This document shows, piece by piece, positions 29,230 to 62,822 of a DNA stretch of 64,000 nucleotides. Source of the DNA: Diphasiastrum complanatum. Taxonomy: Eukaryota; Streptophyta; Lycopodiopsida; Lycopodiales; Lycopodiaceae. The notes below the pieces were generated by a model. It was not told the DNA's origin. It searched no databases and worked only from the letters and a program-made list of their open reading frames with translations. A program made the translations under genes and the position numbers. The stretch is from positions 43,417,245-43,481,244 of the forward strand of contig CM055092.1 of the NCBI GenBank assembly GCA_029204225.1. The letters run 5' to 3'. How positions within the stretch are numbered: position 1 is the first letter of the stretch; every line of letters begins with the position of its first letter.

Positions 29230-31213
29230 AGTATTTGTTATAGTTTCTTACATTTTCTGTGTGTGTGCATATGATTGTGAGATCAAATTTGATCATTTGC
29301 AAGAGTTGGTCTTCTAGAACAATTTGTGTGTTCAACGTATTGTCAATCTCTTGCAATGTTGGTTTTCGAAATCTTATTGTGTTAAAAAAATGATAGGTAC
29401 AAGATGTCAGATGAATGTCTAATTGAGTAATTCAAATGCATTTGAGTGGCCATTTTCCAATATATAGATGTCGAAACGGTGACATATCAAGCATAGATTT
29501 TCTGCTCAATGTCTACATATTGCTGTTAATTGTGCATGATCATTGACTAGTAGTAAAATATAATTTTTAAAAGGCTCATTGCATGGATTGGATTTTATTT
29601 GATTTATTTGAAGCACAACAAGATGCAATGTCTGTGCGGCCATCATGGACATCTCGTCAATAACAATAAAGTCAGCGACAAATGTATGTCAGCTGACATT
29701 AAATTCTATATATATAAGCCATTAACAAGGATGGAAAACATGTTGTGCATTGTTCTTGCATGTTTGCTAAATCTTGATGCAGTGACACCAATAGTGAGCA
29801 CAAAGCAATACAGATGTGTTCGTCTTCTAAAGCGAGTATGCTAGATACTTTACCAAATGCGTTTTTCCACTTCCAAGCGTACCTGAAAGCACAAAAATAC
29901 CCGAAGTTTCTGACATCAAAAGAGAATAGATATTTTTTTTGTTCACTTGTCAATGAGGTATTTCCAAGAAATTCAAATTCGTGTAAAATACCCAAGGCGT
30001 CCTTGGTATATTTTGTCAAGATGTCACATGTCATGACAAAATGATTTGTGTTGCAGTAGAATGGTCATGATCTATTGTCGTTGCTCATCTTGAAGCATTT
30101 GTTTATTTGTATAATCCTCAACATGGCATTCAATATCTCTTTCATTTTTAAGGCGTTCAATTTCTCGAATCTTTTCAGCATCGCCAAGGTGTGCGAGAAG
30201 CTTAGTAGTGGGGTTCATGGAAAGTTCAATGGCAGCATCAATCATGTGTTGTCGGATATAAAGAAAGACAAGGTAGGATTTGACAACATCTATAGCAGGT
30301 TTATAAAACCAAAGGAAGAAGGCATTAAGCTGATTTTGTAGAGAAACACCAGAGAAGAATTTGGAAAGATTATTCATTATGTACTAGATAGAGTGATCAA
30401 ACCAGATAATAGAAGAATTGTTTTTGCATTTGTCACCACACCTGCACTTAAAGAAAGGTCTTTACCAGTTCCAAATTCTAGCTTGATGCAGGTTGATCCT
30501 ATTGAAGCCAGTGTCAAAGTGGCCCCTAGTTCTAGCCGAGGTCTACTTAGAAGTACATCTCAAGGGTTCAAATCTGATCATTTTGATGACAATATCAAAG
30601 GCAATATGAGGATCAAAGGAAAGATTCTTATGTAAAGCGGCAAGTTTGCAAGCTTGGACTTCTACATCAGTAAGATGAGAGAGAGCGATCCAAAGCTCAA
30701 TAGGGATGGGTGCGAGAAAGTTGACAGAAGGTAGGCTCCAAAGTTTATAAGCAATTTTTGCATATTTAAACTCAATGATACAACTAGGTACCAAAGGTAC
30801 TTGGCGACTATTGGCTTGACAAAATTCAAAGGCGGATTGATTTCCCACTTCACAGATTTTTTGTAAAAGAAAGACTCTAATTGGGAAGCACTATTTTCAT
30901 CAAGGTCTTCGGTAAAGATCAAAGGGTGAGACGAAGTAGGAGAAGCAATAGGGAGAGGGGTATTAGCAGTAGAGTCACCATTTTCTTTTTCCAAGCAGGT
31001 AAATACTTTTCAAATATGTAAATGGCAGAATTTTTCTTCAGCAGAAATACGTTCAGCATTGTTTGAGAGGTCCATATAAATTTTTTCAACCATGCTTAAG
31101 GTTTTCTTATTTTTAATAAAGTCCATATAGATTCTGATCCAATCCGTGGTGGTCATCAAGTCAACAAGACAAAAGATTTTATCATCCAGGCCAGCAACAT
31201 TACAAGTAGTCAT
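29230..31213 (-). pseudogene. Pif1-like SF1 helicase relic, C-terminal and middle part
   Basis: On the minus strand a P-loop reads FVLSGTLGSGKTHLVKYLAY (about 29855-29920). It is followed after a shift by GVTASRFSKHARTMHNMFSI, the Walker B/motif II FIVIDEMSMM (about 29641-29675), and a motif III-like DHAQLTAICRH with a nearby Cys pair. Then KPTLQEIDNTLNTQIVLEDQ and FDLTIICTHTENVRNYN (about 29235-29350) follow. These are the landmarks of Pif1-family helicases. Upstream (30060-31213) lies an N-terminal extension of several hundred residues that I do not recognise (for example NPTTKLLAHLGDAEKIREIE), with at least one frameshift. The Helitron-type motif III wording (GGDFRQ) is not seen. Stops and shifts show it is dead. 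It is split by element A. Confidence 0.65.
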
Positions 31214-31860
31214 TGTGAAAATTGTCAACATTTCCTTGTCTAGTTTTAGGCCAAAATTGCTAAAAATGGCACATAGTTTAGGATCTGACTTTTCACACGT
31301 GTGAAACAGGTCTAGATATTTTTAGTAAGTGTATTTTTTCAGTATGAAGAAGTGTCAAACTTCAAGACCTTCGAAATGAGTCCATTTTCATGTATTTTGG
31401 ACATATATGCCAATTTTACCTATATAGGGCATATTTTAGGTAAGGAGGGTCTAGAGAGAGGAGAGAGAGTCATCTCTCTCAGCTATATATAGCAGGTAGG
31501 CCGTGGAGAAACAGGTTGGAGCAGATCCATTGTATTCATTTGCTTAATGAGAGATTTTTCTATTGGGTTCTCCTTCCATTGTTGGCATTGTGTAGTGATT
31601 GAGTTCAAGCTTTGTGTGTATGATCTTAGGTGCTTTTCAAAAGTGGTAGGCTGATGTATTATGGACTGTATAATGCTATTTTGGGCCGCACTTGATGTTT
31701 ATGGAAGTTTCCATTTGTGATAAATGCTTTTTGATCAAGTTCTTTGCATTCTAGGTAGCATAGAATGTGTTGCCAATTCCTAGCTTATGTAGTTTGGAGT
31801 GCAAGCATTCAAGCCAATGATCTTGGAGTTTAGATCCACTTAGGATCTGTATTTTACACA
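31214..31860 (+). repeat. 5' LTR of element A
   Basis: Starts TGTGAAAATTGTC and ends TTTTACACA. It contains a TATATATAG sequence near 31485 preceded by a purine-rich GAGAGAGGAGAGAGAG stretch, a plausible core promoter of the element. Confidence 0.95.
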
Positions 31861-31872
31861 TGGTATCAGAGC
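31861..31872 (+). other. Primer-binding site of element A
   Basis: TGGTATCAGAGC directly follows the LTR. This is the initiator-Met-tRNA complement typical of plant copia elements. Confidence 0.9.
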
Positions 31873-33032
31873 TGGTTGGCTTCTATTTACAGTAAGTATT
31901 CCATTTTTGGTGATATTTGGATGTTTGATCAAGTTCTAGCATGATTTTGCATTGCTTTGTTGATCAAATCTTACTAACCTTTGTTTTGTGAGTTGAACTT
32001 GTGGATCAAAAGCATATTTCAGGTCTATTGAAGATCAGAGGCTGAAAAGAAACTATTTTGGATCAGATCATAACACCTAATCATTTGTGATTGTGAGGCT
32101 TGTGCATATTCAATACTAACAATGTTCTTTTCAATTCTATTGTTGACAATCTCCATTCTTGGATGAACACTCTCCTTAAGTGGATGAAACTTGTCCTTAA
32201 GTGGATGACAAATGCTCTTTTGAGTGAGTTGTAATTCTCCTAAAGGCTGAGCAAAGCTCCCATTTGGATGAAAGATCCCCTTTTTTGGGTGAACATATTG
32301 TAAGCTCCATTGTGAAGAGCATATTGTAAAGATTGTCATCAATTTTGGCATAAATTTTGGTGTACTTTGTTGAGCATGTAAGTAACTCTCCTTATGTAAT
32401 TTGATTGGAGCATTTGCTGGAAGGTGTTAACCATTATGCAAGTGTGTTTTCAGGTTCTTAACAGGTTGAGGAACATTCTCATGTGAAGTGATCTTAGATC
32501 TACATCTAAACACCAAGATTTGACAAGATAGTGAAGCTAGTCTTGTGATTCACTAAGTGTGCTCATTCATTCACCTCTAAATCTTGTATTTATCACTTGC
32601 TGGAGTTTATAAACTTTTAGAAGTGTGGTTTACATGTGGTTTTACAGGTTGAATCAATATCTTAGTGTGTTGATCATATGTTGATCAAGTTTGTTCATTA
32701 CTAGGTAATCTTGGCATCCTAGTTTTGGGTATTTTCTAAGAATGCAAGTAACTCTTCACACCATAACTTGATTTGGTCACTTGCTGGAAAGTTTGAGAGC
32801 TTAAGCAAGAGTGTGTTCAGGTTGGTTTGATTTTGTAATCCATTCTTAGTGTGTGCAAAGTGTTGCATGTGTTTCAATCTTCCTTTCTATGCTTGGAAAC
32901 CATCTAGGTTCAAGATAGAAGTGTTTTAGGGTCCTAAATCTTCATAGATCTCTTTATCTATCATTTGTTGAGAGAAAAGTGAGTGCTAAGTGCTTTAGGA
33001 CAGAACCTAAAAGTTGAAGAAACATTAGAATC
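31873..33032 (+). other. Leader of element A with internal imperfect repeats
   Basis: No long coding frame. A segment with the wording ACTTGCTGGAA followed 30-50 bases later by CAGGTT recurs about every 190 bp (near 32412, 32596 and 32779), and CTTAAGTGGATGA occurs twice near 32175-32205. The size and repeats are notable for a leader. A role in RNA packaging or splicing is only a guess. Confidence 0.6.
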
Positions 33033-36000
33033 ATGGCTTCCAATGGTGGGATCATGCTAGAGTCTAGTGAAAGGTTGAGTTCATCAAACTACTCTACTTG
33101 GAAAGTGAGGATGGAGTCCTTACTTGAGTTGAATGAACTCATGGACATAGTTGCAGAAATTGAAGAGAGACCTCTCACACTTCAAGAGCAACAAAGGTTT
33201 GATAAGAAGGCCAAAAGGACTCTTCATATCATTAAAATGAATGTTACAAATGAACTTCTCAAGGAAGTTGGAAAGTGTCAAAGTGCAAGTGAGGCATGGA
33301 ATGCCTTAAAGAAGCTCTTTGAATCAAAGTCCACATCTAGGGTATTGACCCTAAGGAGACAAATATTTTCTAGTAGGCAAAGAGAGGGTGAAAGTGCTCA
33401 TGCATTTATCTTGAGAGTTAAGTCCCTAAGTGATGATTTAGCATGCATTGATGAGAACATAAAAGATGGTGAAATAGTCCAAGTTATGTTGAATGGTTTG
33501 CTAAATGAACATGCTAACCTTGTGCAAAGTTTTGCCATTCAAAGAGTCTTGCCAAGTGTGGTTGACTTGCAAGAAATCTTATTGGCTGAAGAACATAGGT
33601 TGCAATCAAAGCTTGATGGTGCATCCTTGCAAGGTGGAGGTGAAGAGGCTTTCTTCACAAAAGGCAAATTCAAGGGCAAAGGTAAAGGCAAAGGGAAATG
33701 GTCCAAAGGTGGTAACTTTGATCATGATGATCACTCTTCCTCTTCCTCTTCTACTAAGAACAATAAGTCAAAGTTCAAGTGCTTTTATTGTGGGATAAAA
33801 GGACATTTTGCAAATGAATGCCATAAGAAACAAAATGCTAGATCTAGGTTGAGATCTAATGTACTTCTTGGAGATGATAATTGTTGTGCTAACTTGGCAA
33901 GCTTTGGTGAATCTATGGTCAATTTTTTGGATCCATTGGATCTTGAAGATGCACTAGTGTTACCTACTAGTCATATGGAGTCATGTGGAGCTAAATTAGC
34001 ATCATGTTTGTACTCTTCTACTCATGGACTTCCAAGGCTTGTTGGTTCTTCAATGGTGCTAGATGGCAAGTGCAAAAATGGAAAAGGTAAGGAAGGAGCT
34101 AACTTCATCAATGGAGTTGATGAAGATTCTTCTTTGGAAGTGATTGTTGCTAATGACTTGTTTGTTCATATGGAAAAAGATGGAGATGCTAAGTGTCATT
34201 CTTTGCAAGAAGATGGTTGTTCTTCTAATTCTTTTCATATTGATGTATGTAATCATGTGGGAAAAGATGATGGTGCTTTGAGCATGCTTGAAGGAAATGG
34301 TTCTTTTACATCTTTTTGTGATAAAGTCATTTGTGCAACAAGTGGTGTCACATTTCTTCATAAAAAGAGTAGATCAAAGGTTTCTATCATGAGACTTGGT
34401 GAGGGAGATCACAAGTCAAAAGGAAGAGAAGTATGTGAAGTGTTCAAAGTAGGATGTACTTTGAATGATGTTTTTATGAACGATAGTGAGGAAGAATCAT
34501 TATCATATGACTCATTACCTAAATCATTGAGTAGAAGTTCATGTTTGAAAAGAGAGAGTACTTCAATCACTCTTATGTTGAAGGTACTAAGGATTCTTTT
34601 CTTGGCTTCTAATATTCAAGAGTCTTCTACTTCTTATGGTGCAACTATCAAGAGGGAGGTTTCTAACTTTTGTGGTGCTAGCATTAAGAGGGAGTCTTGT
34701 GAAGGAAAGGGCAATGGAAGAGTGGTTCTTGGGAAGATCCAAAGCATGCATCTAACATCTCTTCATCAACTCAAAGCATTCTATGATTGTGGTGGATTGT
34801 TCATTCATGGTCAAGATGGCAAAAGGTTGGTTGAAGAAGACTACATGGAGCAACTCAAGTGGCAACTTCTTCAAGGCAAGGGAGATATCATTGGTGAGCT
34901 TATTGAGGTTTGTTATGAACTCAAGAGGGCTGTTTTGATTAGGTTTGATACTCATCTTCACCTACTCTACTTCATGTTAAATGGAAATGTTGGAATCTAT
35001 CTTTTGGTTTATGATGGTGGCATTGTTTTCACTAACTATAGTGAAGGGTCAAATTTGAGCATTGATGAGATCTTGTGGGATCTTAATCATGTGTTTGAGA
35101 GGGAGTATCTTCAGAGTTTCAGATCTGAAGATGTTCACATATGCAAGATCTTTGATGTCTTATTGGAAGATCAAGAGGTTGATCTTGGATTGCTTCATCA
35201 ACACCAAGAGACAAGTGGCAATTCGAAGCTAGTGAAAAGCATCAAAGAAGAGACAAATGGTCAAGGCATTTTGGATCTGTTTTTACAGGTTCTTGAAGGT
35301 TCAAGTAAGGTCTTTGGAGCTGCAAGGAAGTGTCTTCTTACTCTACCTCACTTGCCTAATCTCATGTATGAACATTGTTATGTCAATGTGTTGAAATTGT
35401 CAAATTTCAATAAAACTAGTTCCATAGTTTTGCATCCTTTGGATCTTGGAGATGGAATAGTTATCATTGCTGGTTTGTATGATCAAGTACATGAATTCAT
35501 TCAGATCTTGAAAGGTATTGAAGTGGTCAATATGTTTTCTTTTGAACAAAGTTCAAGATCTAGTATTCTAGTGTTGGCAAATTGGCAACTTGTTGACATT
35601 GTAGGATCAAGCGTTGTGTGCAAATCTTGTGGAGGTACTTCAAGTATTTCAAGTTCAGGTTTTGGTCATTCAAATGGAGTAGGGAACACATCTTTTTGGC
35701 ATTCATTCACTCAAAGGCTTTCATGGATTGAAGATCTACAAAGGCAAGGTGGTGATGGAAGTTCATTCATGGAGATACATGTTGCATTCACTATATGTAT
35801 AGTGAAATGTGGAGGAGGCATGAAAACACTTGTTGATCACTTTCATTTACAACTTGTTTGCTGCTATTTTACAGAGAAACCAGAGATGGATACATGGAGG
35901 AATTCATTAATCGAGATTCTATATTCTTTTACATGTACCATTTTTATGATTCTATGTAAAATTGATGTAAGAAATAGTGAAGCATCCTATATGGACACTA

Positions 36001-36125
36001 TTATCTATATCAATTATGTTGTGTCCTATTTTGTACATATTAGGATCCTTGAGAAGAGATCTATTCTGATGATGGAGATCATTCTTAAGTTGGAACAAAG
36101 TAGTGTTGTAAAACTAGCAAGTTAA
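33033..36125 (+). CDS. 1030-residue gag-fusion protein of element A; C-terminal ~750 residues unidentified
   Basis: Residues 1 to about 200 are a copia gag (SSNYSTWKVRMESLLELNE, then LHIIKMNVTNELLKEVGKC). A Lys/Gly-rich stretch and an intact zinc knuckle CFYCGIKGHFANEC follow at about 250-263. After that no protease DSG motif, integrase HHCC/DDE, RT YVDD or RNase H is found. Residues ~270-700 are Ser/Lys/Glu-rich and unrecognised. Residues ~710 to the end contain a module homologous in the same frame to element B: EDQEVDL, then LVKSIKEE, DLFLQVLEGSSKV, ARKC, and near the end CKIDVRNSEAS. A 3.1 kb frame without a stop in such AT-rich DNA is very unlikely by chance. From family knowledge gag proteins form the virus-like particle. 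The role of the rest is unknown. The start is the first Met after the leader and matches the gag start of element B. Confidence 0.85.
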   Translation: MASNGGIMLESSERLSSSNYSTWKVRMESLLELNELMDIVAEIEERPLTLQEQQRFDKKAKRTLHIIKMNVTNELLKEVGKCQSASEAWNALKKLFESKSTSRVLTLRRQIFSSRQREGESAHAFILRVKSLSDDLACIDENIKDGEIVQVMLNGLLNEHANLVQSFAIQRVLPSVVDLQEILLAEEHRLQSKLDGASLQGGGEEAFFTKGKFKGKGKGKGKWSKGGNFDHDDHSSSSSSTKNNKSKFKCFYCGIKGHFANECHKKQNARSRLRSNVLLGDDNCCANLASFGESMVNFLDPLDLEDALVLPTSHMESCGAKLASCLYSSTHGLPRLVGSSMVLDGKCKNGKGKEGANFINGVDEDSSLEVIVANDLFVHMEKDGDAKCHSLQEDGCSSNSFHIDVCNHVGKDDGALSMLEGNGSFTSFCDKVICATSGVTFLHKKSRSKVSIMRLGEGDHKSKGREVCEVFKVGCTLNDVFMNDSEEESLSYDSLPKSLSRSSCLKRESTSITLMLKVLRILFLASNIQESSTSYGATIKREVSNFCGASIKRESCEGKGNGRVVLGKIQSMHLTSLHQLKAFYDCGGLFIHGQDGKRLVEEDYMEQLKWQLLQGKGDIIGELIEVCYELKRAVLIRFDTHLHLLYFMLNGNVGIYLLVYDGGIVFTNYSEGSNLSIDEILWDLNHVFEREYLQSFRSEDVHICKIFDVLLEDQEVDLGLLHQHQETSGNSKLVKSIKEETNGQGILDLFLQVLEGSSKVFGAARKCLLTLPHLPNLMYEHCYVNVLKLSNFNKTSSIVLHPLDLGDGIVIIAGLYDQVHEFIQILKGIEVVNMFSFEQSSRSSILVLANWQLVDIVGSSVVCKSCGGTSSISSSGFGHSNGVGNTSFWHSFTQRLSWIEDLQRQGGDGSSFMEIHVAFTICIVKCGGGMKTLVDHFHLQLVCCYFTEKPEMDTWRNSLIEILYSFTCTIFMILCKIDVRNSEASYMDTIIYINYVVSYFVHIRILEKRSILMMEIILKLEQSSVVKLAS

Positions 36126-36138
36126 GTTCAAGAGGGAG

Positions 36139-36785
36139 TGTGAAAATTGTCAACATTTCCTTGTCTAGTTTTAGGCCAAAATTGCTAAAAATGGCACATA
36201 GTTTAGGATCTGACTTTTCACACGTGTGAAACAGGTCTAGATATTTTTAGTAAGTGTATTTTTTCAGTATGAAGAAGTGTCAAACTTCAAGACCTTCGAA
36301 ATGAGTCCATTTTCATGTATTTTGGACATATATGCCAATTTTACCTATATAGGGCATATTTTAGGTAAGGAGGGTCTAGAGAGAGGAGAGAGAGTCATCT
36401 CTCTCAGCTATATATAGCAGGTAGGCCGTGGAGAAACAGGTTGGAGCAGATCCATTGTATTCATTTGCTTAATGAGAGATTTTTCTATTGGGTTCTCCTT
36501 CCATTGTTGGCATTGTGTAGTGATTGAGTTCAAGCTTTGTGTGTATGATCTTAGGTGCTTTCCAAAAGTGGTAGGCTGATGTATTATGGACTGTATAATG
36601 CTATTTTGGGCCGCACTTGATGTTTATGGAAGTTTCCATTTGTGATAAATGCTTTTTGATCAAGTTCTTTGCATTCTAGGTAGCATAGAATGTGTTGCCA
36701 ATTCCTAGCTTATGTAGTTTGGAGTGCAAGCATTCAAGCCAATGATCTTGGAGTTTAGATCCACTTAGGATCTGTATTTTTCACA
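36139..36785 (+). repeat. 3' LTR of element A
   Basis: Starts at 36139 after the polypurine tract AGAGGGAG (36131-36138) and ends TTTTTCACA. It has the same length as the 5' LTR and differs at two positions by eye, which indicates a young insertion. Confidence 0.95.
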
Positions 36786-37255
36786 GTCATATCATAAGTA
36801 GTAATCAGTTTGTGAACATCAATAGCTTTCTTCATGCAACATAAAATAGTCCGGACAAAGGGACTAGGAGGAGGAAGGGGCTCCCCATAGCCAAGAGAAA
36901 TTGCGTCATGAAACCATTTTGTGGACTAAACCATGAAACAGACCTGGTTAGCCATAAAATACAAGTAAAGGTAAAGGTTTGGTATTACCCCAACCAAAGG
37001 GTAGTCGAGGTGGCATCAAAGATACTAGAGAGAGAGTAACAAGATTTCACATAGTCCCTGTTGACAAGAAAAGACCAAACTCTTTGAACCCTTCAATTTA
37101 AAGCATAATAGGTAAAATCAATGCTGTATAAAGTCTAACAGTATAGAGAGTACCATAAAGTGAAACAAGTCCTAAGAGACCCAACTGTTTGTAGAACAAC
37201 TGATCAGACAGATCTTGATTCTACCAACAAAGCGCACAGTTTACTTGACAAAGGA
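36786..37255 (-). pseudogene. Helicase relic, N-terminal part beyond element A
   Basis: The minus-strand frame KWFHDAISLGYGEPLPPPSP, with FVRTILCCMKKAIDVHK behind it, runs into the target duplication. It continues on the other side of element A as VAGLDDKIFCLVDLMTT. Further upstream FLVNRDYVKSCYSLSSIF is readable in another frame, with shifts and a stop between. The domain is not recognised. The relic ends near 37255, where sequence resembling the LTR of element D begins. Confidence 0.55.
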
Positions 37256-39483: not shown

Positions 39484-40046
39484 TTTTCATGTGCCAACCT
39501 TAGCATTCAAACATCTAATCCATTCATTAAACATCAAATTACAATGGAAATGCAAGAAATCAAGAAATTAGTCAAAAATCAAGAAGATAGCTAAAAGTAA
39601 TAAAACTTCACCAAAATAGGCAAAGTAAGGTATCTTTATTCATGATTATTGATCATTCACAAGATAGGGCCTGATTTTAGAGCATGATCATAGGTCTCAT
39701 GTGATTTTAGGCACATGAACCACTTTCTACATCAAGAAAGCTCTCCAAGAGAAGCTCCAAGATATCTTAAAACTCAAAATTACAAAATGAACAATAGCCT
39801 CCAAATTCAGCACGACCTTAGCTATTTATAGTTGTCATTTGTGCCTCTACTATAACTTTGGGGCCTTATTTGACTAATTTGGGCCTTACAACCATTATTA
39901 CAAGTTCGCTATTCACAAATATAGCGAGGTTGTTCGAACCACCTTATTAGCTGTCCTAATGACTAACTCTAGTCTACTTTAGCTCCATGGCCATATTTGG
40001 CAATTCATTAGTAAGCTCATGGGCTAATTACATGCGGCACATGACA
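39484..40046 (-). repeat. 3' LTR of element C
   Basis: On the plus strand it runs from TTTTCATGTGCCAACC to GCGGCACATGACA. Ends are imperfect inverted repeats (CATGTGCC/GGCACATG). It is close to the 48608-49166 copy. Confidence 0.85.
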
Positions 40047-40477: not shown

Positions 40478-41163
40478 TGTGAAAGATTTCAGATCCTTAA
40501 GATCCAATCTACTTGAATGATCTTTGGTTAGAAAGAGAAATACACTACCAATTTCACCAATGTAGAAAAATCAGCATCTACACACAATTTGAGATGCAAA
40601 CACTAATAGAACTTGATCAAACTTGAATGAAACAAACACTAATAGAACTTGATCAAACTTGAATGAAATGATTATGTACTGTTGCTGTCTGTACACAACC
40701 AGCAAGCTACTGTATTTCACACGTGTGGATCCAAAAATAGCAAATATAGATCATTCTACACATAGAATTGCAAGCAATCACCAAGATAGTGCACCAATGG
40801 ATAGTAGAACCCAAGAGAACCATGTATAAGCATGAAATGAGATAGAGAAGAGAGAAGATGACTCTCTCCACGAGTTACATCCTTTTATAACAGGTCCAAA
40901 CCCTATTTGGCCACTTGGCTTCCCCACCAAAATGCTAACCCTACCAATTTTGGGTCTAGATTCAATGTACCCAACTTATTCAAATTGAATCTACTCAAAC
41001 TCGCATTCTATCTTTCCCACACTTTCAAAAAATGTTTATTCAAATGAAATTTAGACTAATGAACTTTGAAAAGTCAACCTCTAAGTCTAAAACAAGTTTT
41101 GGCCTCAATATGCCAAATATGAAAATATTGCAAAATCTGATGAAACTAGTTGAATCTTTCACA
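40478..41163 (-). repeat. 3' LTR of element B
   Basis: On the plus strand TGTGAAAGATTTC to AATCTTTCACA. It includes two adjacent copies of a 36 bp unit (containing AATAGAACTTGATCAAACTT) near 40607-40680, where the 5' LTR has one. The polypurine tract GAAGAGGGAG lies next to 41163 on the minus strand. Confidence 0.95.
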
Positions 41164-41169
41164 CTCCCT

Positions 41170-41760
41170 CTTCAACTAGTTTTAGCATAGACTTTGATAA
41201 TACTCCAAGTGAAGTCCTATGCTTCATGAAAAAGTCTCGTCCCAATGCTTTGGTGAAGATATCAGCTACACATTCCCTTGAAGACACATGTTGAAGCTCC
41301 ACCTCCTTTGCAATGACTCACTCCCTCACAAAATGATATTGTATCTCAATATGCTTGCTCCTAGCATGAAAGATAGGATTGGAAGCCATTCTTTGGGCTG
41401 ATTGATTGTCACAAAAGATGATTGGGCTCTCTGAAAAATCCAGCAAGTGAAGATCCTTGATCATCCTTTTGATCCATACCATCTCCTTTGTGCAATGTGT
41501 AAGAGCTTTGTACTCGGCCTCACTAGATGACAATGAGATAGTGGCTTGTTTCTTTGACATCCATGATATAGCTCCATCACCTATGAAAATACAATAAGAA
41601 ATAATGGATTTTCTATCCATTACATCTCCAGCATAGTCCGAATCTGAAAATCCAAAAAGATTAGGTGATGATCCCTCATACGATATGCCAAAATCTCGAG
41701 TTCCGATGATGTACCTCAAAACTCGCTTTCCTAGCTTCCAATGCTCCTAGCATAGTTTTT
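41170..41760 (-). pseudogene. RNase H domain of element B
   Basis: Reads HWKLGKRVLRYIIGTRDFG, FSDSDYAGDVMDRKS, SSSEAEYKALTHCTKE and IFCDNQSAQRMASNPIFHAR, so the D, E and D catalytic positions are kept. A TGA follows FVRE near 41318, after which the C-terminal block (CVADIFTKALGRDFF) continues in the same frame up to the polypurine tract. The domain begins immediately after the shared module, with no palm domain of RT before it. Confidence 0.88.
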
Positions 41761-42290
41761 GCCAATAGAACTTTGATCCATCATAAGAATGATCTTCTTC
41801 CTAAGAATAGATCTCCTTTCAATGATCATGTAATGCTCAAAATAGAAACAACCATAATTGATATAGAGAATAGTGTCCACTTGGGATGCTTCACTATTTC
41901 TTACATCAATTTTACATATCAAGATGTGACTAGAACATGAAGAATCAATTAGAAAAGTAAATGAAATGATTCACCAAGAATGCTAGTACAAATCCAACAT
42001 CAAAACAATGCTCACCAATGTAGCTAGTTTTACCATATCTTGACAATTTGCACACATCCACATGAAATTGCTCAAACATGAGATAGAACAAGTAAAGTAA
42101 ACTTGAACAACACTTCCTTACTGCTCCTTTGACCTTACTTGAGTCTTCAATATGCTGCAAAAACAGATCCATAACACCTTTGCCAATAACCTCTCCTTTG
42201 ATGTTCTTGACTAGCTCCAAATTGCCAACTTCCCTTTTGACTAGTTGAAGCGCTTTGAGATCAACCTCTTGATCTTCAACTTGATCATCA
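41731..42290 (-). other. Module shared with element A, in the RT position of element B
   Basis: Minus-strand translation gives EDQEVDL, LVKNIKGEVIGKGVMDLFLQ, EDSSKVKGAVRKC and VCKLSRYGKTSYI. After a stop at 41945 it gives ICKIDVRNSEASQVDTILYI. The same blocks in the same order occur in element A at about 35160-36110, in the A open frame. Similarity also exists at nucleotide level, about 70 percent or more by eye. The left part (to 41945) is in frame with gag-integrase. It ends just before the RNase H block HWKLGKR. Function unknown. Confidence 0.8.
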
Positions 42291-44881
42291 AAGTCATTGA
42301 ACAAACTTTGTTTTCCAGATCCAATACTTGATTTTACAGCAAGACAACATCCATCCACTTGCATAGCTCCATGTACACAAGAAGATCTTCCAAAAGATGT
42401 TCCACTCTTCATAAGAGATCGATACTCAAGATCCATTGCTTGGATCCACTCCTCTTCTTTCCTTGCTTGATCTAAACTTGTAGGCTCATCCAAAGAGGTT
42501 AGGAAAGCAACATAATTTCCAGAAACTACTTGCTTACCCTTTTGATCATATGTGAGCCTTGAAGGTACTTGTCTTTCTCTTGATGTTCTCCTTGGCTTTT
42601 GACTTGATGAAGGTCCATCATCACCACCATCCAAAGTAGGATCCTTCTCATCAACATCAAGAATGTTAGATCCATCTACTTTACCATCAATCATGCTTGA
42701 AGACACCTTTGGAATGTTTCCCTCATCAAAAATGACATCTCTACCAACAATCACTTTGTTAGTAGAAGGAATGTAAACCTTGTAGGCTTTACTCACCTCA
42801 CTATATCCAACAAAAATACCTCTTCTTGAAGATGGATCCTCCTTGGTCCTATCATCAAGAGTAATGTTGACATAGCATGTGCATCCAAAGGTTCTTAGAA
42901 AGTTGACACTAGGCCTCCTCTTGAATAGCATCTCAAAAGGTGTCCTTCCATCCAAAATAGCACTCAGCCACCTATTGCACAAGAAATTGGCACACAACAA
43001 AGCTTGATCCCAAAATGGTTTGTCAAGATTAGCACTTAACCTCATAGCTTTAGCACTTTCACATAAAGTTCTATTCTTCCTTTTAGCCACTCCATTTTGT
43101 TGTGGGGTCCTTGATGTTGTATACTCCCTCTTGATCCCATGCTCATCACAAAAGGCCTTGAACTTGTTAGATATGTACTCACCACCATTGTCACCTCTCA
43201 AGCACTTGATCTTTGTGGAAAATTGGTTCTCCCTTGCATTCTTGAACTTGACAAAGACATCATACACTTCATCCTTGCTCTTTAGTAGATAGATCCAACA
43301 AAATCTACTAAAATCATCAATGAATGTTACATACATCTTAGCTCCGCTATTGCTAATTGTAGTAAATCCATGAATATCCGAATGTACAAGTTGAAAAGGC
43401 TTTGTAGATCTAGAAATAGATCTAGTATAAGGTAGTCTATGTGACTTAGACAAAGCACAAGACTCACAAACATGCTTGTCATTACTTAAGGAACTTGGAA
43501 GACTAATCACAACCTTCTTCCTTACCATTACCTCCAATGACTTGAAGTTGAGGTGTCCCATCCTTTTGTGCCAAACCTCTTGAATAGAAATTTGCTCCCT
43601 TGCAACACATCCAACTTGGTTAGCAATAACACAAGCATCAAGTTTGAACAACTTCTCTTGCCTTTTACCTTTTCCAATCAAGACATCCTTCCTTTTGATC
43701 AAACAAGCATCTCCATCAAACTCCACCTTGAGGCTCTTACTTAGCATTTGACTCACACTAAGCAAATTCTTGGTAATAGATGGAATAAACAAGACATCCT
43801 CCAAATGAACATTCCTATTTGTAGAGAGAGAAATAGGAATTGTGCCAATCCCTTTGATTGCACACTCACCATCATTGGCCGTGTAGATCACCCTCTTGTC
43901 ATCTCCATATGCCAACAAAGAAGTGAAGTACTCTTTGTGAAAGGTCATGTGTGAACTTGCTCCACTATCAATCCACCAAGGATCTAGATCTCCATCATTA
44001 GCAAGCATACATGAAGACATCACAAAAGCATCATCATTTGCATCTTGCACATCCAAACCATCCTCATCAAGAGTAAGATTACCTTGCTTGTCTCCTTGAT
44101 CTCTCTTCTTCTTGTAGCACTCACTTGCAAAGTGTCCTTTGATGCCACAATAGAAGAACTTGAGCTTTGATCTATCCTTCTTTTTGCTACTTGAAGAAGC
44201 ATCCACTTGATCTTGCCCTTTAGACCACTTGCTTTTGGTTTTGCCCTTGAATTTGCCCTTTGTGAACATAGCATCTTCTTGAAGTGTCGATGTAGATCCA
44301 CCTCTTGCTTGAAGCCTATATTCCTCATTGATCAAGATCTCTTGAAGATCCATCAAACTTGGCAAAGTCTTTTGAATAGCAATACTTTGAGCAATGTTAG
44401 CATGAGCATCCAAGAAGCCATTAAGAATCACTTGAATAAGCTCTCCTTCCTTAATGCTTTCATCTATGCAAGCTAACTCATCATTCAATGCTTTCATTCT
44501 CAAAACAAAAGTACTCGGAGTTTCTTCATTCTTTTGCAAACAAAAAAAGATTTGCCTTCTTAGAGTCAACACTCTATAAGTAGACTTGGATTCATAAAGC
44601 TTCTTCAATAAATTCCAAGCTTCCAAAGATGATGTGCACTTACCAACTTCCTTGAGAAGTTCATTGGTAACATTCATCTTTATCATGTGTAGAGCCTTCT
44701 TGGCCCTCTTGTCATACCTCAATTGATCTTGTTGTGTTGCTGGTCTCTCCTCCAAACCTACAACAATATCCAAAACATCATTCATCTCAAGAAGTGACTC
44801 CATCCTCACTTTCCATAATGAATAGTTACTTGAGGTAAGCCTATCATTGGCTTCCAACATGACTCCAATTGAGGTTGCCAT
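41945..44881 (-). CDS. gag-protease-integrase-module polyprotein of element B (978 residues, defective)
   Basis: gag at residues 1 to about 200 (SSNYSLWKVRMESLLEMND) closely matches element A. The zinc knuckle reads FFYCGIKGHFASEC, so its first Cys is Phe. The protease motif WWIDSGASSHMTF is intact. The integrase HHCC block (VWHKRMGHLNFKS...CESC) and the first two catalytic Asp (FIDDFSR, RGDNGGEY) are present. The Glu is replaced by Lys (NGVAKRKNRT instead of NGVAERKNRT). The frame passes EEEWIQAMDLEYRSLMKSG, the normal start of RT, then switches to unrelated sequence and the module shared with A. It is open throughout, which is striking for a defective copy. From family knowledge the Lys substitution should abolish integration. 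Confidence 0.9.
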   Translation of the reverse strand: MATSIGVMLEANDRLTSSNYSLWKVRMESLLEMNDVLDIVVGLEERPATQQDQLRYDKRAKKALHMIKMNVTNELLKEVGKCTSSLEAWNLLKKLYESKSTYRVLTLRRQIFFCLQKNEETPSTFVLRMKALNDELACIDESIKEGELIQVILNGFLDAHANIAQSIAIQKTLPSLMDLQEILINEEYRLQARGGSTSTLQEDAMFTKGKFKGKTKSKWSKGQDQVDASSSSKKKDRSKLKFFYCGIKGHFASECYKKKRDQGDKQGNLTLDEDGLDVQDANDDAFVMSSCMLANDGDLDPWWIDSGASSHMTFHKEYFTSLLAYGDDKRVIYTANDGECAIKGIGTIPISLSTNRNVHLEDVLFIPSITKNLLSVSQMLSKSLKVEFDGDACLIKRKDVLIGKGKRQEKLFKLDACVIANQVGCVAREQISIQEVWHKRMGHLNFKSLEVMVRKKVVISLPSSLSNDKHVCESCALSKSHRLPYTRSISRSTKPFQLVHSDIHGFTTISNSGAKMYVTFIDDFSRFCWIYLLKSKDEVYDVFVKFKNARENQFSTKIKCLRGDNGGEYISNKFKAFCDEHGIKREYTTSRTPQQNGVAKRKNRTLCESAKAMRLSANLDKPFWDQALLCANFLCNRWLSAILDGRTPFEMLFKRRPSVNFLRTFGCTCYVNITLDDRTKEDPSSRRGIFVGYSEVSKAYKVYIPSTNKVIVGRDVIFDEGNIPKVSSSMIDGKVDGSNILDVDEKDPTLDGGDDGPSSSQKPRRTSRERQVPSRLTYDQKGKQVVSGNYVAFLTSLDEPTSLDQARKEEEWIQAMDLEYRSLMKSGTSFGRSSCVHGAMQVDGCCLAVKSSIGSGKQSLFNDFDDQVEDQEVDLKALQLVKREVGNLELVKNIKGEVIGKGVMDLFLQHIEDSSKVKGAVRKCCSSLLYLFYLMFEQFHVDVCKLSRYGKTSYIGEHCFDVGFVLAFLVNHFIYFSN

Positions 44882-45469
44882 GTAGCAATGACCTGATCTT
44901 CTCTTTCAGCCTGCTTCAATGCACAAAGCACTCCTTTGAGCAACAACAAATGCTTTCAAAAGAAATCACCAAGATTTGAAACTATCTCACAAATTCTGTT
45001 CTAGCACTTATCCAAGCAAATCAACACATAGAATCATGGAATCTTGATCAACCTATGATCTATCCTCAATCTAATGCCTTTTGCCACTTTCTAAGATTGA
45101 AACACACTCAAATGAAGTCCAGCAACCTCACTATCTAGAGATCCAATCAAAATTAGGGTTTTGACAAAATCACAAAAAATTGACTATTCCAAATCTACAT
45201 GCAAATGCTGAAAATTTGATATGCAATCTATAAGCCACCACTTAGGCCTAACCAATGATCCAAAAATTGGCCAAATCCAGCATGTGAATTCAAAAAACGG
45301 AATTGAACAAGTATATTGACCTATTTAGTGTTTTGATCTACAAAAGATCCAATCTACAAAAGCAAAAAATCCGATTTTGGTGTAGAATCCTCTCTAGCAT
45401 GCTCTAGACTTGATATCTTCACCAAATCATTGATAGATCTGATTTCCTCCTTCATAAACTGAAACACAA

Positions 45470-45481
45470 GCTCTGATACCA
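45470..45481 (-). other. Primer-binding site of element B
   Basis: Reads TGGTATCAGAGC on the minus strand, directly after the 5' LTR end. Confidence 0.92.
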
Positions 45482-46131
45482 TGTGAAAGATTTCAGATCC
45501 TTAAGATCCAATCTACTTGAATGATCTTTGGTTAGAAAGAGAAATACACTACCAATTTCACCAATGTAGAAAAATCAGCATCTACACACAATTTGAGATG
45601 CAAACACTAATAGAACTTGATCAAACTTGAATGAAATGATTATGTACTGTTGCTGTCCGTACAAAACCAGCAAGCTACTATATTTCACACGTGTGGATCC
45701 AAAAATAGCAAATATAGATCATTCTACACATAGAATTGCAAGCAATCACCAAGATAGTGCACCAATGGATAGTAGAACCCAAGAGAACCATGTATAAGCA
45801 TGAAATGAGATAGAGAAGAGAGAAGACGACTCTCTCCACGACTTACATCCTTTTATAGCAGGTCCAAACCCTATTTGGCCACTTGGCTTTCCCACCAAAA
45901 TGCTAACCCTACCAATTTTGGGTCTAGATTCAATGTACCCAACTTATTCAAATTGAATCTACTCAAACTCGCATTCTATCTTTCCCACACTTTCAAAAAA
46001 TGTTTATTCAAATGAAATTTAGACTAATGAACTTTGAAAAGTCAACCTCTAAGTCTAAAACAGGTTTTGGCCTCAATATGCCAAATATGGAAATATTGCA
46101 AAATGTGATGAAACTAGTTGAATCTTTCACA
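45482..46131 (-). repeat. 5' LTR of element B
   Basis: 650 bp, TGTGAAAG to CTTTCACA on the plus strand. It corresponds to the 40478-41163 copy minus the 36 bp duplication. Confidence 0.95.
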
Positions 46132-48607: not shown

Positions 48608-49166
48608 TTTTCATGTGCCAACCTTAGCATTCAAACATCTAATCCATTCATTAAACATCACATTACAATGGAAATGCAAGAAATCAAGAAATCAGTCAAA
48701 AATCAAGAAGATAGCTAAAAGTAACAAAACTTCACCAAAATAGACAAAGTAAGGTATCTTTATTCATGATTATTGATCATTCACAAGATAGGGCCTGATT
48801 CTAGAGCATGATCATAGCTCTCATGTGATTTTAGGCACATGAACCACTTTCTTCATCAAGAAAGCTCTCCAAGAGAAGCTCCAAGATCTCTTAAAACTCA
48901 AAATTACAAAATGAACAATAGCCTCCAAATTCAACACGACCTTAGCTATTTATAGTGATCATTTGTGCCTCTACTATAAGTTTGGGGCCTTATTTGGCTA
49001 ATTTGGGCCTTACAACATTACAAGTCCGCTATTCACAAATATAGCAAGGTTGTTCGAACCACCTTATTAGCTGTCCTAATGACTAACTCTAGTCTACTTT
49101 AGCTCCATGGCCATATTTGGCAATTCATTAGTAAGCTCATGGGCTAATTACATGCGGCACATGACA
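48608..49166 (-). repeat. 5' LTR of element C
   Basis: Second copy of the element C LTR, next to the primer-binding site, bordered outside by the ATCCC duplication. Confidence 0.85.
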
Positions 49167-51660: not shown

Positions 51661-52139
51661 AACAGAAGATGTCGAGTCCATGTGCAAGAGATAGCAGCAA
51701 ATCAGTCCAAACAAACGACAGCACAAATCTAACGTTCCAAGACTGAAAACCATGCCATCACTTTAATACAGAAACATAAACTTAAAATAGAATTTAAGGG
51801 TGGATTTTTTGATCGAAAAATCGTCCCGATCTACAACCTTGGTCGTTTTATTTATGGCAGACGAGACTGGCATGGTTGGTGGGACAGAAGAAGAAGCAGA
51901 TCCTACATGCAAGGTAAATGTTGAATTTACTAAAACATAATAATGATATGGGATGGAGCTTTTTGTTAGCTGCTGTTAGACGTTTTACTACTTCCCTCTG
52001 GAATGTGCATAGTTGACGAGCTCTGTGTTTTTGGTCGTGTACAGGATTTCGTATATATTTTTTTGACCTATTTTAGGACGTGTTTCTTGCTTGCTATCAC
52101 TTATTGTAACAAACATTTCGTTAGCAAATTTCACTTATC

Positions 52140-52692
52140 ATTACAAAATGTTCGTTACCATATTCACTTGCATCATCTTTGAGACATTGTATTCTGATTT
52201 TCGTGCCTTGTCCTAGAGGCTCATTTTCAGTGTCCTCTGTCACTGCAAAAGCTCCAACTGCTTTTGACTCCCAAGTATATTGCTTATCATCGTTATGTCT
52301 GCTGATGAACTCCATATAAGTAGCAGCCAAATAGACAGAGTAAAATCCAACACCGAATTGTCCAACGGAATTCAAATTGCCACCTTTACACACTTCAACC
52401 AAAAGTGTCATTATCCCAATGTTTTTTATATTGAGACAATCTTTTGTCATACCAATGCCTCGATCCCTAATTGTAAGGTTCCCTTTGTCTGTGTCTACTT
52501 TTATCTGAAACTCAAGTCTTGCCTCATCCCCTTCTCCAAGAATAGCCTTATTAGTGAGAGATAAGAAACGTTTTTTTTCCTGAACATCTGATGCATTGGA
52601 AATAAGAAATAAGTTCTGGAATAAAATTGTCCTTGTTGTTGTATAAAGAGTTGATGATGATATCCATCAACCTGGACACCTCCGCCTAGAAC
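52140..52692 (-). pseudogene. GRP94: GRP94/endoplasmin-type HSP90 N-terminal domain fragment
   Basis: The minus-strand translation shows EVSRLMDIIINSLYNNKDNF, then SNASD after a 5 bp disturbance near 52600, TNKAILGEGDEARLEFQ, IRDRGIGMTK and GQFGVGFYSVYLAATYMEFI. It ends KIRIQCLKDDASEY. These are the ATP-binding motifs of HSP90 proteins, and the wording is closest to the ER paralogue. Two stops precede EVSRLMD, about six residues are missing before GQFGVG, and homology ends near 52140. No other part of the gene is present and no intron is seen over 550 bp, so it may be a truncated processed copy. Confidence 0.85.
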
Positions 52693-60676: not shown

Positions 60677-61199
60677 TTTTTTTTTTTTTTTTTTCCCTCA
60701 TAAAGACTAGCCATAGATTAATAATTTTATACAAGATACAAACTGAAATCTCAAAGAAATTAATTAGAGATAGATTAACTTATCAGCCTCTTTAAAAACC
60801 AGCAAGCGAAAATAAGAAAATCATCGTTCCCAAATTCCCTGTTATTTCTATCAAGCCAAATGTTCCAAAGGGTAATAACTCTAAGCCATTGCCAATAGGA
60901 ATTGGCAGTAGCATCATCAAACAAAATATCGGCCAGCAGTAAGGCGATATGGCTGAATCTTTTGAATTCAACATGAAAAGGTGCAATAAAAGATCAGCCA
61001 CTGAATTCCAATATGGAGCATAGCAATGGAAGAATAAGTGTGGCACGTCCTCAATTGATGTTTTGCATATAGAGCAGACATGCGACACATTGCCCCTATA
61101 TTTGTCACGAACAGGAAGAGCAAGCTGGAGGATTCTAAGGGAGAAAATGTGAAAGTACTGTACTTTAGGACCATAAATGGATCTACAAAAGATCCACAA
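60677..61199 (-). pseudogene. 3' end of a LINE retrotransposon (zf-RVT domain and poly(A))
   Basis: The minus-strand open frame 61199-60792 reads GPKVQYFHIFSLRILQLALP, then HVCSICKTSIEDVPHLFFHC. This matches the zinc-binding domain after RT in plant LINEs (CxxC...HLFFxC). Downstream an 18 base T run on the plus strand (60677-60694) is the poly(A) tail. It is strongly 5' truncated. No clear target duplication was found. Confidence 0.8.
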
Positions 61200-61849
61200 G
61201 AGTGATTGGATGCTTGCTTAACAATCTATCAAAAAACTAGACACAAAAAAGTTGATCTAGATTGGCAATTTGACAAACAACAAGCATTAACAATCAAAAG
61301 CATTGATCAACATTGAAATACGAGCCCACACATGTGTACTACAGGCTGTAGTACGGCCTTCAACCTGAGAAACAAGTATAAACTGATTTGGTTTCATTTG
61401 GATCACAAAAACTCAATGTACATAGTGAACTAGCTTGAGATTGTCAATGAGCTCCAAAAATTTTCTATCTACTCACTATGGAGAGAGGGAATACATAGCA
61501 AATTCGACTTCCTTCTTGAAGTTAGGTGGATTTCCAGCATGTAATAAGGAATTTAACTCACTCTCCTTGACCTAAAATGAAACCCTAGTCTATTTCCTAG
61601 AGTCATGCTTGGTAGATAGCTAGTTGGTCAAATTTTCACCTTAAATCTAGGATTTAGGTCCTATAAACTAGGAATCACTACCAAAATGACATGACCAACC
61701 CTATGGACTTGACCTAACCTACATTAGGAGTGGATTTCCACGTGGCATCTTGGCCTCACATGTGTGGAATCCACTTATGTACAAAATTTACATTATACTA
61801 CATGGTTTGTGATCAAGCTAGATTTGCCAATTTTTGGCAATTCTTCACA
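61200..61849 (-). repeat. 3' LTR of copia element N (outer boundary uncertain)
   Basis: It ends GGCAATTCTTCACA on the plus strand. The adjacent CTCCTCCTCAAA (61850 on) is a polypurine tract on the minus strand. The assumed length of ~650 bp follows that of the related A and B LTRs. The true left end next to the LINE was not seen. Confidence 0.55.
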
Positions 61850-62822
61850 CTCCTCCTCAAATTTAGCTTGATCTATCTACAACTCTCTTTCTAGATGAAT
61901 GAATGCTTTTAGAAGTGTCTAAAAAATCCAGCTACAAGCAAGGAACTTTTGAGACTCCAATAGAGAATGTTGTCCATGAAGGATCTTTCACCACCTCTTA
62001 GAGGATTCCTTACAAGATGTTCCACAAAGTGTCTATATACATGTAGCACACTTCAAAAACTATACATCATGCCAAGCCATGGATTCCAAGGCATTTTGTG
62101 CACTTGATAATACATCAATAAAAACTATCAAGTGCATAACATATTGTTGCCAAAGACATCTTGCCTTGCTTGATCCATATGATTGAGCCTAGATGACTCC
62201 ATCTTGATACTCATGGTTCTTCTTGGAGTCCTTGGGTCTTGAGCTTGCTCCTCCACTTGACTTGACTCCAAACCATCAATGAATTGAATAAGGTGTTTGA
62301 TCCAAAGGTGCTTCTTCAAGTTTACAAATCTTCCACTCTTGAAAGATCACATTTCCACCATTGACCAATTCTTTGGTTGAAAACAAGTAGATTCTATCTC
62401 TACTTGAAGAGCAAAACACTACCATTATTCCTATCATTGAAATATTATAATATTTGGTCCTTACATTGGAATGATCTTGCACAAAGCATTTGGACACAAA
62501 GATTTCCAAAGAAAATGATGTTTCATCTTTATGACTCTAATCAAACTATTACAAAAATAGTTATCCAATGAAATTGCTTTATCAACAACAAATGTAGATT
62601 TCAAAGCATCTCATTTCATTGTCTTGTCATACAAAGTAATAAACACCATGAATCTTAAGGTAATAAACAAGTCACCTCATGTCCTACTACTACTTTCCAA
62701 AACTAATTCAAAGACAGTAGACTCTCCAATGCTCACCACCCTTGCAAGATGCACACTTGAATGGACAATTTGCATGCAATTTGATGACTCGGCCATTGTC
62801 ATTGAGGACTCCCTTGGAACTC
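61850..62822 (-). pseudogene. Element N: integrase C-terminal remnant and linker
   Basis: The minus strand around 62509-62276 shows IYLFSTKELVNGGNVIFQEW, the equivalent of the VYIPSTNKVIVGRDVIFDE block of element B. It is followed by a linker and ALESMAWHD near the start of RT (about 62070). The integrase core, RT and RNase H are absent. Confidence 0.65.

What the first reader, a model, noticed from the sequence alone, without database searches (positions are those of the whole stretch)
33780..36125. A recently mobile copia-type element whose pol is replaced by a ~750-residue open reading frame of unknown function
Element A has LTRs differing at two positions by eye, an exact GTCAT target duplication, an intact gag and zinc knuckle, and one uninterrupted 1030-codon frame. 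Everything after the zinc knuckle lacks protease, integrase, RT or RNase H motifs. A 2.3 kb stop-free extension in AT-rich DNA suggests selection on the protein or a very recent in-frame fusion. Non-autonomous LTR elements that keep only gag are known in plants (TR-GAG type). A long gag fusion with an unknown C-terminal half would be a distinct variant.
Basis: partly seen in the sequence, partly recalled or inferred. Interest (0 to 1): 0.8.

Follow-up and report, generated by a model that had tools for sequence, protein, structure and literature searches.

The report
Gag-only copia retrotransposon with decayed pol
This is a young, abundant plant jumping gene that still makes its shell protein but seems to borrow its enzymes; the mysterious second half of its long gene includes a dead reverse-transcriptase remnant and, where it could be tested, shows no sign of being a new functional protein, although its reading frame has stayed open for unknown reasons.

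Summary
The element is real: 31214-36785, two 647-bp LTRs (2 differences), GTCAT target duplication, one 1030-codon frame starting with a copia Gag and CCHC knuckle. The host genome (1.74 Gb, unnamed) holds many near-identical copies; 16 of 20 fetched keep the full frame. Post-Gag codons have no Pfam or PDB match and no confident fold, but codons ~585-689 are an in-frame relic of a copia reverse transcriptase with YVDD lost. Other pieces are shared with a second family (B, also in this window), where the same material replaces the RT between integrase and RNase H; one RT-bearing partner of B was read. Between A and B, Gag is under strong purifying selection (dN/dS 0.16), while the 275 testable post-Gag codons evolve like non-coding DNA (0.85-1.01), though stops are far fewer than neutral drift predicts. 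So 'selection on an unknown protein' is not supported. A is a Gag-supplying non-autonomous copia element, closest to the gypsy element RLG_Quinta of wheat. Unusual is a 2.2-kb frame kept open without visible amino-acid constraint; evasion of nonsense-mediated decay is my preferred, untested cause.

The parts
31214..31860 (+). 5' LTR of element A (647 bp, TG...CA)
31209..31213 (+). target duplication GTCAT (left); right copy at 36786-36790
31861..31872 (+). primer-binding site TGGTATCAGAGC, identical in element B (the name and tRNA role are recalled, from no call)
   Evidence: sequence; 36-bp A/B match at 86% over LTR end and PBS
33033..36125 (+). single 1030-codon ORF: Gag plus post-Gag extension
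   Evidence: full-length in 16 of 20 fetched copies
33033..33878 (+). Gag (codons 1-282), purifying selection: dN/dS 0.13 (A1 vs A2 cassette), 0.16 (A vs B)
33777..33821 (+). CCHC zinc knuckle (codons 249-263)
   Evidence: E 0.0035, below Pfam cut-off
33894..34046 (+). shared segment X2 (codons 288-338), 77-80% DNA match to the middle of the B-family X
34785..35099 (+). reverse-transcriptase relic (codons ~585-689): VEEDYMEQ..., YDGG in place of YVDD, with a deletion of some 11-17 residues (depends on the alignment) relative to the intact RT
35151..35450 (+). shared segment X1 (codons 707-806), about 70-72% DNA match to B-family X
35748..36119 (+). shared segment X3 (codons 906-1029), including a 34-bp run identical to B copy L055
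36126..36138 (+). polypurine tract; ...AAGAGGGAG directly before the 3' LTR, same in B (role recalled)
   Evidence: sequence
36139..36785 (+). 3' LTR of element A
40478..46131 (-). element B: related non-autonomous element, TSD CTATG, LTRs 45482-46131 and 40478-41163
   Evidence: sequence
41945..44881 (-). ORF of element B, 978 aa: Gag, Pol_BBD, GAG-pre-integrase, integrase, SH3, then part of X; about 413 bp of X present in most fetched B copies is missing here
41318..41746 (-). RNase H remnant of element B (142-codon open stretch ending at a TGA), in another frame than its ORF
   Evidence: sequence and frame; no Pfam hit at E 0.001; assignment by eye (recalled) and by its in-frame continuity with RT in L061

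Best explanation
Element A is a non-autonomous copia-type LTR retrotransposon that still supplies functional Gag and is copied with pol enzymes supplied in trans. SHOWN: young copies with TSDs, Gag under purifying selection, swapped Gag cassettes on near-identical backbones, no pol domains, an RT relic in frame, and post-Gag codons (where testable) with no measurable amino-acid constraint. SHOWN for family B: the same material sits where the RT lies in an RT-bearing relative. INFERRED: the backbone arose by deletion and template switching from an autonomous gag-pol element; a partner with compatible PBS, PPT and LTR ends (of the kind that drives B) supplies RT, RNase H and integrase. INFERRED, less sure: the post-Gag region is not a new protein domain but a translated filler. 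Its frame is kept open because a stop soon after Gag would leave a 3' UTR of about 2 kb or more and expose the RNA to nonsense-mediated decay or related surveillance; in A the ORF ends 13 nt before the 3' LTR.
For: Structure, TSD, LTR identity. No pol domain by Pfam; no PDB match at E 10. Copies: 40 of 40 scored hits about 100% over 1 kb, out of 2522 candidates of which only 40 were scored; 14 of 20 fetched have exact 5-bp TSDs, 16 of 20 full-length frames. Gag cassette swap: the six A2 copies have 50-62 differences in each of three 250-bp bins over Gag, 18-30 in the two bins beside them, 0-5 in the rest. dN/dS: Gag 0.13 (0.08-0.22) and 0.16 (0.09-0.26); X 0.85-1.01. Among 30 B copies pairwise pN/pS is X 0.85, Gag 0.67, PR-INT 0.51, and for variants shared by 3 or more copies 1.02, 0.41, 0.57 (PR-INT was the search query, so favoured). 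RT relic: score 72, shuffles 33.3 +/- 5.4, 0 of 1000; other five frames 29-47, reversed RT 42; BLASTP 3e-4. B has 1061 nt of X where L061 has 876 nt of RT, between flanks 97-98% identical; L061 RVT_2 8e-80. Stops expected under neutral drift: 4.7 (A) and 5.6 (B, on copy L055), none seen, chances 0.008 and 0.0025. AF2 of post-Gag: mean pLDDT 29.6, all 748 residues below 50.
Against: A's own partner was not found: the Gag search meant to show it did not complete. Only 275 of 748 post-Gag codons could be tested for dN/dS. The bootstrap range (0.62-1.44) allows mild constraint, or a mix of constraint and diversification. As a control, other frames of the same codons gave 0.63, 0.86 (forward) and 0.95, 0.88, 1.19 (reverse), so one unused, stop-rich frame scored lower than the real one. 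X shows coding-like periodicity. In B, X is complete and unbroken in only 10 of 30 copies and holds more stops per kb (0.37) than Gag (0.18) or PR-INT (0.04; query-favoured): single copies tolerate breaks, so openness holds for the copying lineage at best. L055 and A were both chosen with open frames. A 34-bp identical run in X3 (16 of 5000 shuffles as long) hints at nucleotide constraint or recent exchange. In B more than 1 kb (RNase H, LTR) follows the ORF, which weakens the NMD argument. The AF2 result is weak: two rows, and the Gag control could not be run.
Confidence: 0.65

Rival explanations
1. The post-Gag region is a real, fast-evolving protein (a Gag-linked accessory domain such as DUF1 of RLG_Quinta), under weak or diversifying selection, that works in packaging, RNA binding or host evasion.
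For: Frame open in A far beyond chance and in the longest B frames; coding-like base periodicity; bootstrap limits for dN/dS reach 0.62; second codon positions change most (85 against 78 and 66), as diversifying selection could give.
Against: dN/dS 0.85-1.01; third codon positions change least. Variants among 21 A copies (element A and L009-L028) in codons 283-1030 are 19 non-synonymous to 4 synonymous, roughly as expected without constraint. No confident fold, no Pfam match above cut-off, no PDB match. One stretch is a dead RT. X broken or incomplete in 20 of 30 B copies.
Confidence: 0.17
2. The region is constrained as RNA or DNA (packaging, dimerisation or PPT-proximal signal), not as protein, and the open frame is a by-product of ancestry.
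For: X diverges far less (0.35 per site) than Gag synonymous sites (0.92 A1-A2; 1.77 A-B, near saturation); 34-bp identical run; element C's 3' part aligns with B X3 at DNA level, score 287 against a maximum of 242 in 300 crude 2-mer shuffles.
Against: Low X divergence is as well explained by recent exchange between families: exchange is seen at Gag and at the RT/X replacement. Nucleotide constraint alone does not remove the expected stops, which were computed from the observed divergence.
Confidence: 0.1
3. The open frame is simply young: coding sequence was captured so recently that stops have not had time to arise.
For: A copies are almost identical, with few variants; LTR divergence 2 of 647.
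Against: The A-B split in X is old enough (0.35 per site) that 4.7 and 5.6 stops are expected on the two branches; none is seen in A or in L055. Over 30 B copies only 10 stops occur in 27,015 bases of X. The RT relic is only 29% identical to the RT of L061.
Confidence: 0.08

Closest known systems
RLG_Quinta (gypsy, einkorn wheat; PMC11302176, passages read)
   Same: Non-autonomous; ORF encodes GAG plus a domain of unknown function; shares PBS and LTR ends with an autonomous partner; two lineages with strongly diverged GAG on otherwise over 90% identical sequence, attributed to template switching.
   Different: Ours is copia-type; part of the unknown region is identified as an RT relic; the shared part was tested and shows no amino-acid constraint; a second family carries the same material in place of RT. 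In the passages I read, DUF1 is said to have no known function and perhaps to have been acquired later; I saw no selection test of it.
RLG_Sabrina / RLG_WHAM 'semi-autonomous' elements (gypsy, wheat; PMC9744471, passages read)
   Same: GAG (with protease) kept, RT and INT absent, other segments swapped in, high copy number.
   Different: Gypsy; there GAG-Pro itself is replaced by other short coding segments in some Sabrina variants; ours keeps Gag in one long fused frame without protease.
TR-GAG class (definition read in PMC6022998, passages)
   Same: LTR element whose only recognisable domain is GAG (or GAG and protease).
   Different: A 748-codon in-frame extension follows Gag; the passages I read say nothing of such an extension. 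The original TR-GAG paper was not read.
Athila of Arabidopsis (PMC2410132, passages read)
   Same: Pol-less families with Gag under purifying selection and recombination between families.
   Different: Intact ORFs reported there are Gag and Env; no pol relic fused to Gag in the passages I read.

Membership tests
Ty1/copia superfamily | copia-type Gag domain | tested here: met
   Retrotran_gag_2 E 2.1e-21
Ty1/copia superfamily | integrase upstream of RT | tested here: inconclusive
   A has no integrase match; its RT relic is copia-like. In L061 integrase precedes RT.
TR-GAG (non-autonomous with GAG only or GAG plus protease) | intact LTRs and TSD, GAG present | tested here: met
TR-GAG (non-autonomous with GAG only or GAG plus protease) | no recognisable integrase, RT or RNase H domain | tested here: met
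   no Pfam pol match after Gag; the RT relic lacks YVDD
RLG_Quinta-like GAG+DUF partner element | single ORF of GAG plus unknown domain, no RT or INT | tested here: met
RLG_Quinta-like GAG+DUF partner element | autonomous partner with same PBS, LTR ends and PPT | tested here: inconclusive
   A and B share PBS, PPT and LTR ends (sequence); B has an RT-bearing relative whose LTRs I did not read; A's own partner was not found (search unanswered)
RLG_Quinta-like GAG+DUF partner element | gypsy (RLG) element | tested here: not met
   Gag and RT relic are copia-type
Autonomous copia element | functional RT with YVDD | tested here: not met
   YDGG at the aligned place, residues missing

The most novel reading that the evidence does not exclude
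A retroelement frame of about 750 codons is kept open by selection on translatability alone: any amino acids will do, but no stop, so that ribosomes cover the packaged RNA up to the 3' LTR and it escapes nonsense-mediated decay or translation-linked silencing. Dead pol would then persist as a 'translated filler', and families exchange such fillers (X in A; X in place of RT in B) by template switching. 'Domains of unknown function' in other Gag-only elements such as RLG_Quinta DUF1 could be the same.
Probability: 0.25. Interest if true: 0.7.

Novelty: new variant of a known kind. Interest (0 to 1): 0.45.

Why it matters
Gag-only plant retrotransposons with unexplained ORF extensions have been reported, and such an extra domain invites the guess of a functional protein. 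Here one such extension can be traced in part to dead RT and shown, where it can be tested, to have no amino-acid constraint while staying stop-free in the copying lineage. That makes a general question directly testable: is selection on these ORFs for protein or for an open frame? The window also shows a clean RT-for-filler replacement in a second, abundant family with an RT-bearing relative in the same genome.

Tried and rejected
RNase H or RT-connection origin of X1, X3 and codons 283-560: by eye I saw similarities, but of ten alignment tests nine were no better than many shuffles and one was borderline (codons 691-1030 against the RT end, 46 of 1000; 251 of 1000 with looser gaps), so I dropped them; only codons ~585-689 stand as RT. 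With looser gaps the RT alignment extends over codons ~563-797 (1 of 1000), which I do not rely on. The single decayed RT in this window (about 27 kb) gave no significant match to the relic (scores 35/28/34; 110, 416 and 45 of 500 shuffles as good). Internal repeats within A: only a 34-bp pair at 85%. Element C (gag plus PR at 62900-64000) as a third family: its frame is broken and its similarity to X is weak at protein level (best: A X3 against C frame 0, 1 of 500 shuffles as good; five other frame pairs 33-418 of 500; tblastn 0.001 against L055 in another frame), so it is not used as evidence of selection. Structure prediction: uniformly low, not searched against fold libraries. Host species not determined; a guess led to a paper search with no result.

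Literature searched (open-access PMC only; I saw the listings and the starts of abstracts). I found no report of a copia Gag-only element with an in-frame RT relic, but subscription papers, including the original TR-GAG paper, were not read. Papers opened, passages only: PMC6022998, PMC9744471, PMC2410132, PMC11302176, PMC5031192.

Full report
OBSERVATION. Element A spans 31214-36785 on the + strand, with LTRs of 647 bp differing at 2 sites, TSD GTCAT, a PBS directly after the 5' LTR and a purine tract directly before the 3' LTR (sequence). At a borrowed rate of 1.3e-8 per site per year (recalled; not calibrated for this host) two differences correspond to about 0.12 My. One frame of 1030 codons runs from 33033 to 36125. 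Pfam at E 0.1 sees Gag, and below its cut-offs DUF4219, the CCHC knuckle and a weak ubiquitin match inside Gag. The 748 codons after Gag hold no stop, against 36-75 in the other five frames and 48.9 expected.

COPIES. The window lies in an unnamed 1.74-Gb genome. A 1-kb piece of the post-Gag region gave 40 of 40 scored hits at about 100%; there were 2522 first-look candidates and only the best 40 are scored. I fetched 20 of these 40 places. Fourteen have exact 5-bp TSDs. Sixteen keep the whole frame (1030, 1025 or 1024 codons), three are broken (L014, L026, L027) and one (L010) lies partly in N. Because the rows were picked by similarity they are biased to young copies.

MOSAIC GAG. Thirteen fetched copies are of the window's type (A1), six of a second type (A2: L011, L013, L014, L019, L022, L025), and L010 is A2-like as far as it can be read. 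A2 differs from A by 50-62 sites in each of three 250-bp bins across Gag, 18-30 in the two bins beside them, and 0-5 in the rest, including LTRs and the post-Gag region. Gag dN/dS between A1 and A2 is 0.13, limits 0.08-0.22. So Gag cassettes have been exchanged, most simply by template switching, and Gag is functional.

ELEMENT B AND ITS PARTNER. On the minus strand at 40478-46131 lies element B (TSD CTATG; sequence). Its 978-codon frame holds Gag, the protease-region Pol_BBD, integrase and SH3 domains, then a tail homologous to A (52% identity over A codons 707-806). Searching its PR-INT part gave 80 scored rows, 96-100% identical; the 189,248 first-look candidates need not be B copies. Thirty were fetched. 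In the longest of them (five of 30 with frames of 1195-1196 codons by the table) the frame runs Gag-PR-INT-X; RNase H follows in another frame. An RNase H query gave 150 rows at 96-100% identity. Many have the short 195-codon frame of B, but 11 of 150 (my count) have frames of 700 or more codons, up to 1325. It has the same integrase end (97.9% over 822 bp), an intact copia RT (RVT_2 8e-80, YVDD) and the same RNase H start. B therefore has 1061 nt of X where this RT-bearing relative has 876 nt of RT. I did not read the other ten, nor L061's LTRs.

WHAT THE POST-GAG REGION IS. It is a patchwork. Codons ~585-689 align with the L061 RT (score 72; shuffles 33.3 +/- 5.4, 0 of 1000; other frames 29-47; reversed RT 42; BLASTP 3e-4, 29% identity over 119 columns), with YVDD replaced by YDGG and some 11-17 residues missing, depending on the alignment. 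Segments at codons 288-338, 707-814 and 904-1030 are shared with B's X, in another order. I found no convincing link of these to the RT connection or RNase H; their origin, and that of codons 339-584 and 815-903, is unknown. There is no Pfam match above cut-off (best E 0.017), no PDB match and no confident fold (mean pLDDT 29.6). The best blocks of the model (35-43) lie over the RT relic, but all residues are below 50.

SELECTION. Over 275 aligned codons dN/dS of A against seven B copies is 0.85-1.01, limits 0.62-1.44, and substitutions by codon position (against L055) are 78/85/66; in Gag of the same pair they are 76/54/134 with dN/dS 0.16. The same count in wrong frames gave 0.63, 0.86, 0.95, 0.88 and 1.19. 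Within B, X has pairwise pN/pS 0.85 against 0.67 for Gag and 0.51 for PR-INT (PR-INT is favoured by the way copies were found). Yet stops are scarce: simulated neutral drift over half the A-B distance gives 4.7 stops on A's branch and 5.6 on B's, with chances of none of 0.008 and 0.0025. A and L055 both have open frames by choice, but over all 30 B copies X holds only 10 stops in 27,015 bases. Against this, X is complete and unbroken in only 10 of those 30, and has more stops per kb than Gag (0.37 against 0.18); so single copies break freely, and it is the lineage that stayed open. X differs by 0.35 per site between A and B, while Gag synonymous sites differ by 1.77 (near saturation); exchange of X between families after their Gags split is the simplest reading.

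MECHANISM. Shown: young mobile copies, functional Gag, dead or lost pol, cassette exchange, an RT-bearing relative for B. Inferred: A is mobilised in trans by a pol compatible with the PBS, PPT and LTR ends that A and B share (sequence), and pays back in Gag. Inferred and least certain: the post-Gag frame is a translated filler. A stop after Gag would create a 3' UTR of more than 2 kb, and long 3' UTRs favour nonsense-mediated decay (PMC5031192, passages); A's stop lies 13 nt before its 3' LTR. B weakens this, since RNase H and the LTR follow its ORF.

KNOWN RELATIVES. RLG_Quinta of einkorn wheat is the closest described that I saw: Gag plus an unknown domain in one ORF, pol supplied by RLG_Cereba, two diverged Gag cassettes on nearly identical backbones (PMC11302176, passages). 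RLG_Sabrina and RLG_WHAM (PMC9744471, passages), TR-GAG (PMC6022998, passages) and Athila (PMC2410132, passages) are the wider kin. Element A works like RLG_Quinta but is copia-type, so it is a counterpart, not a member. New here, as far as my searches show, are the RT relic, the measured lack of amino-acid constraint, and the replacement of RT by the same filler in a second family.

Noticed in passing
40478-46131 (-): Element B: abundant copia family with gag-PR-INT kept, RT replaced by filler X, RNase H left out of frame; the window copy also lacks about 413 bp of the filler. One LTR carries a 36-bp tandem duplication.
   Followed up: yes
61148-64000 (-), continuing into N beyond the window: Element C: decayed gag + protease copia element; no integrase or RT was seen in this stretch by tblastn with B's ORF or by RT motifs. 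It has its own 3' LTR and purine tract (sequence); its 3' part aligns weakly with B's X3.
   Followed up: partly
31873-33032: Long leader (about 1.2 kb) of element A with repeated phrases of the type 'aagtaactctt...cttgctggaa' (by eye); not analysed.
   Followed up: no
52121-52666 (-): Open stretch with a weak GHKL/HATPase match (E 1.3e-4, below Pfam cut-off), perhaps a host gene exon.
   Followed up: no
3252-3839 (-): Open stretch matching glycosyl transferase family group 2 (E 7.4e-9), perhaps a host gene fragment.
   Followed up: no
39484-40046 and 48608-49166: Direct repeats (97-99% identical) on both sides of element B, so B may be nested inside an older repeat-flanked element.
   Followed up: no
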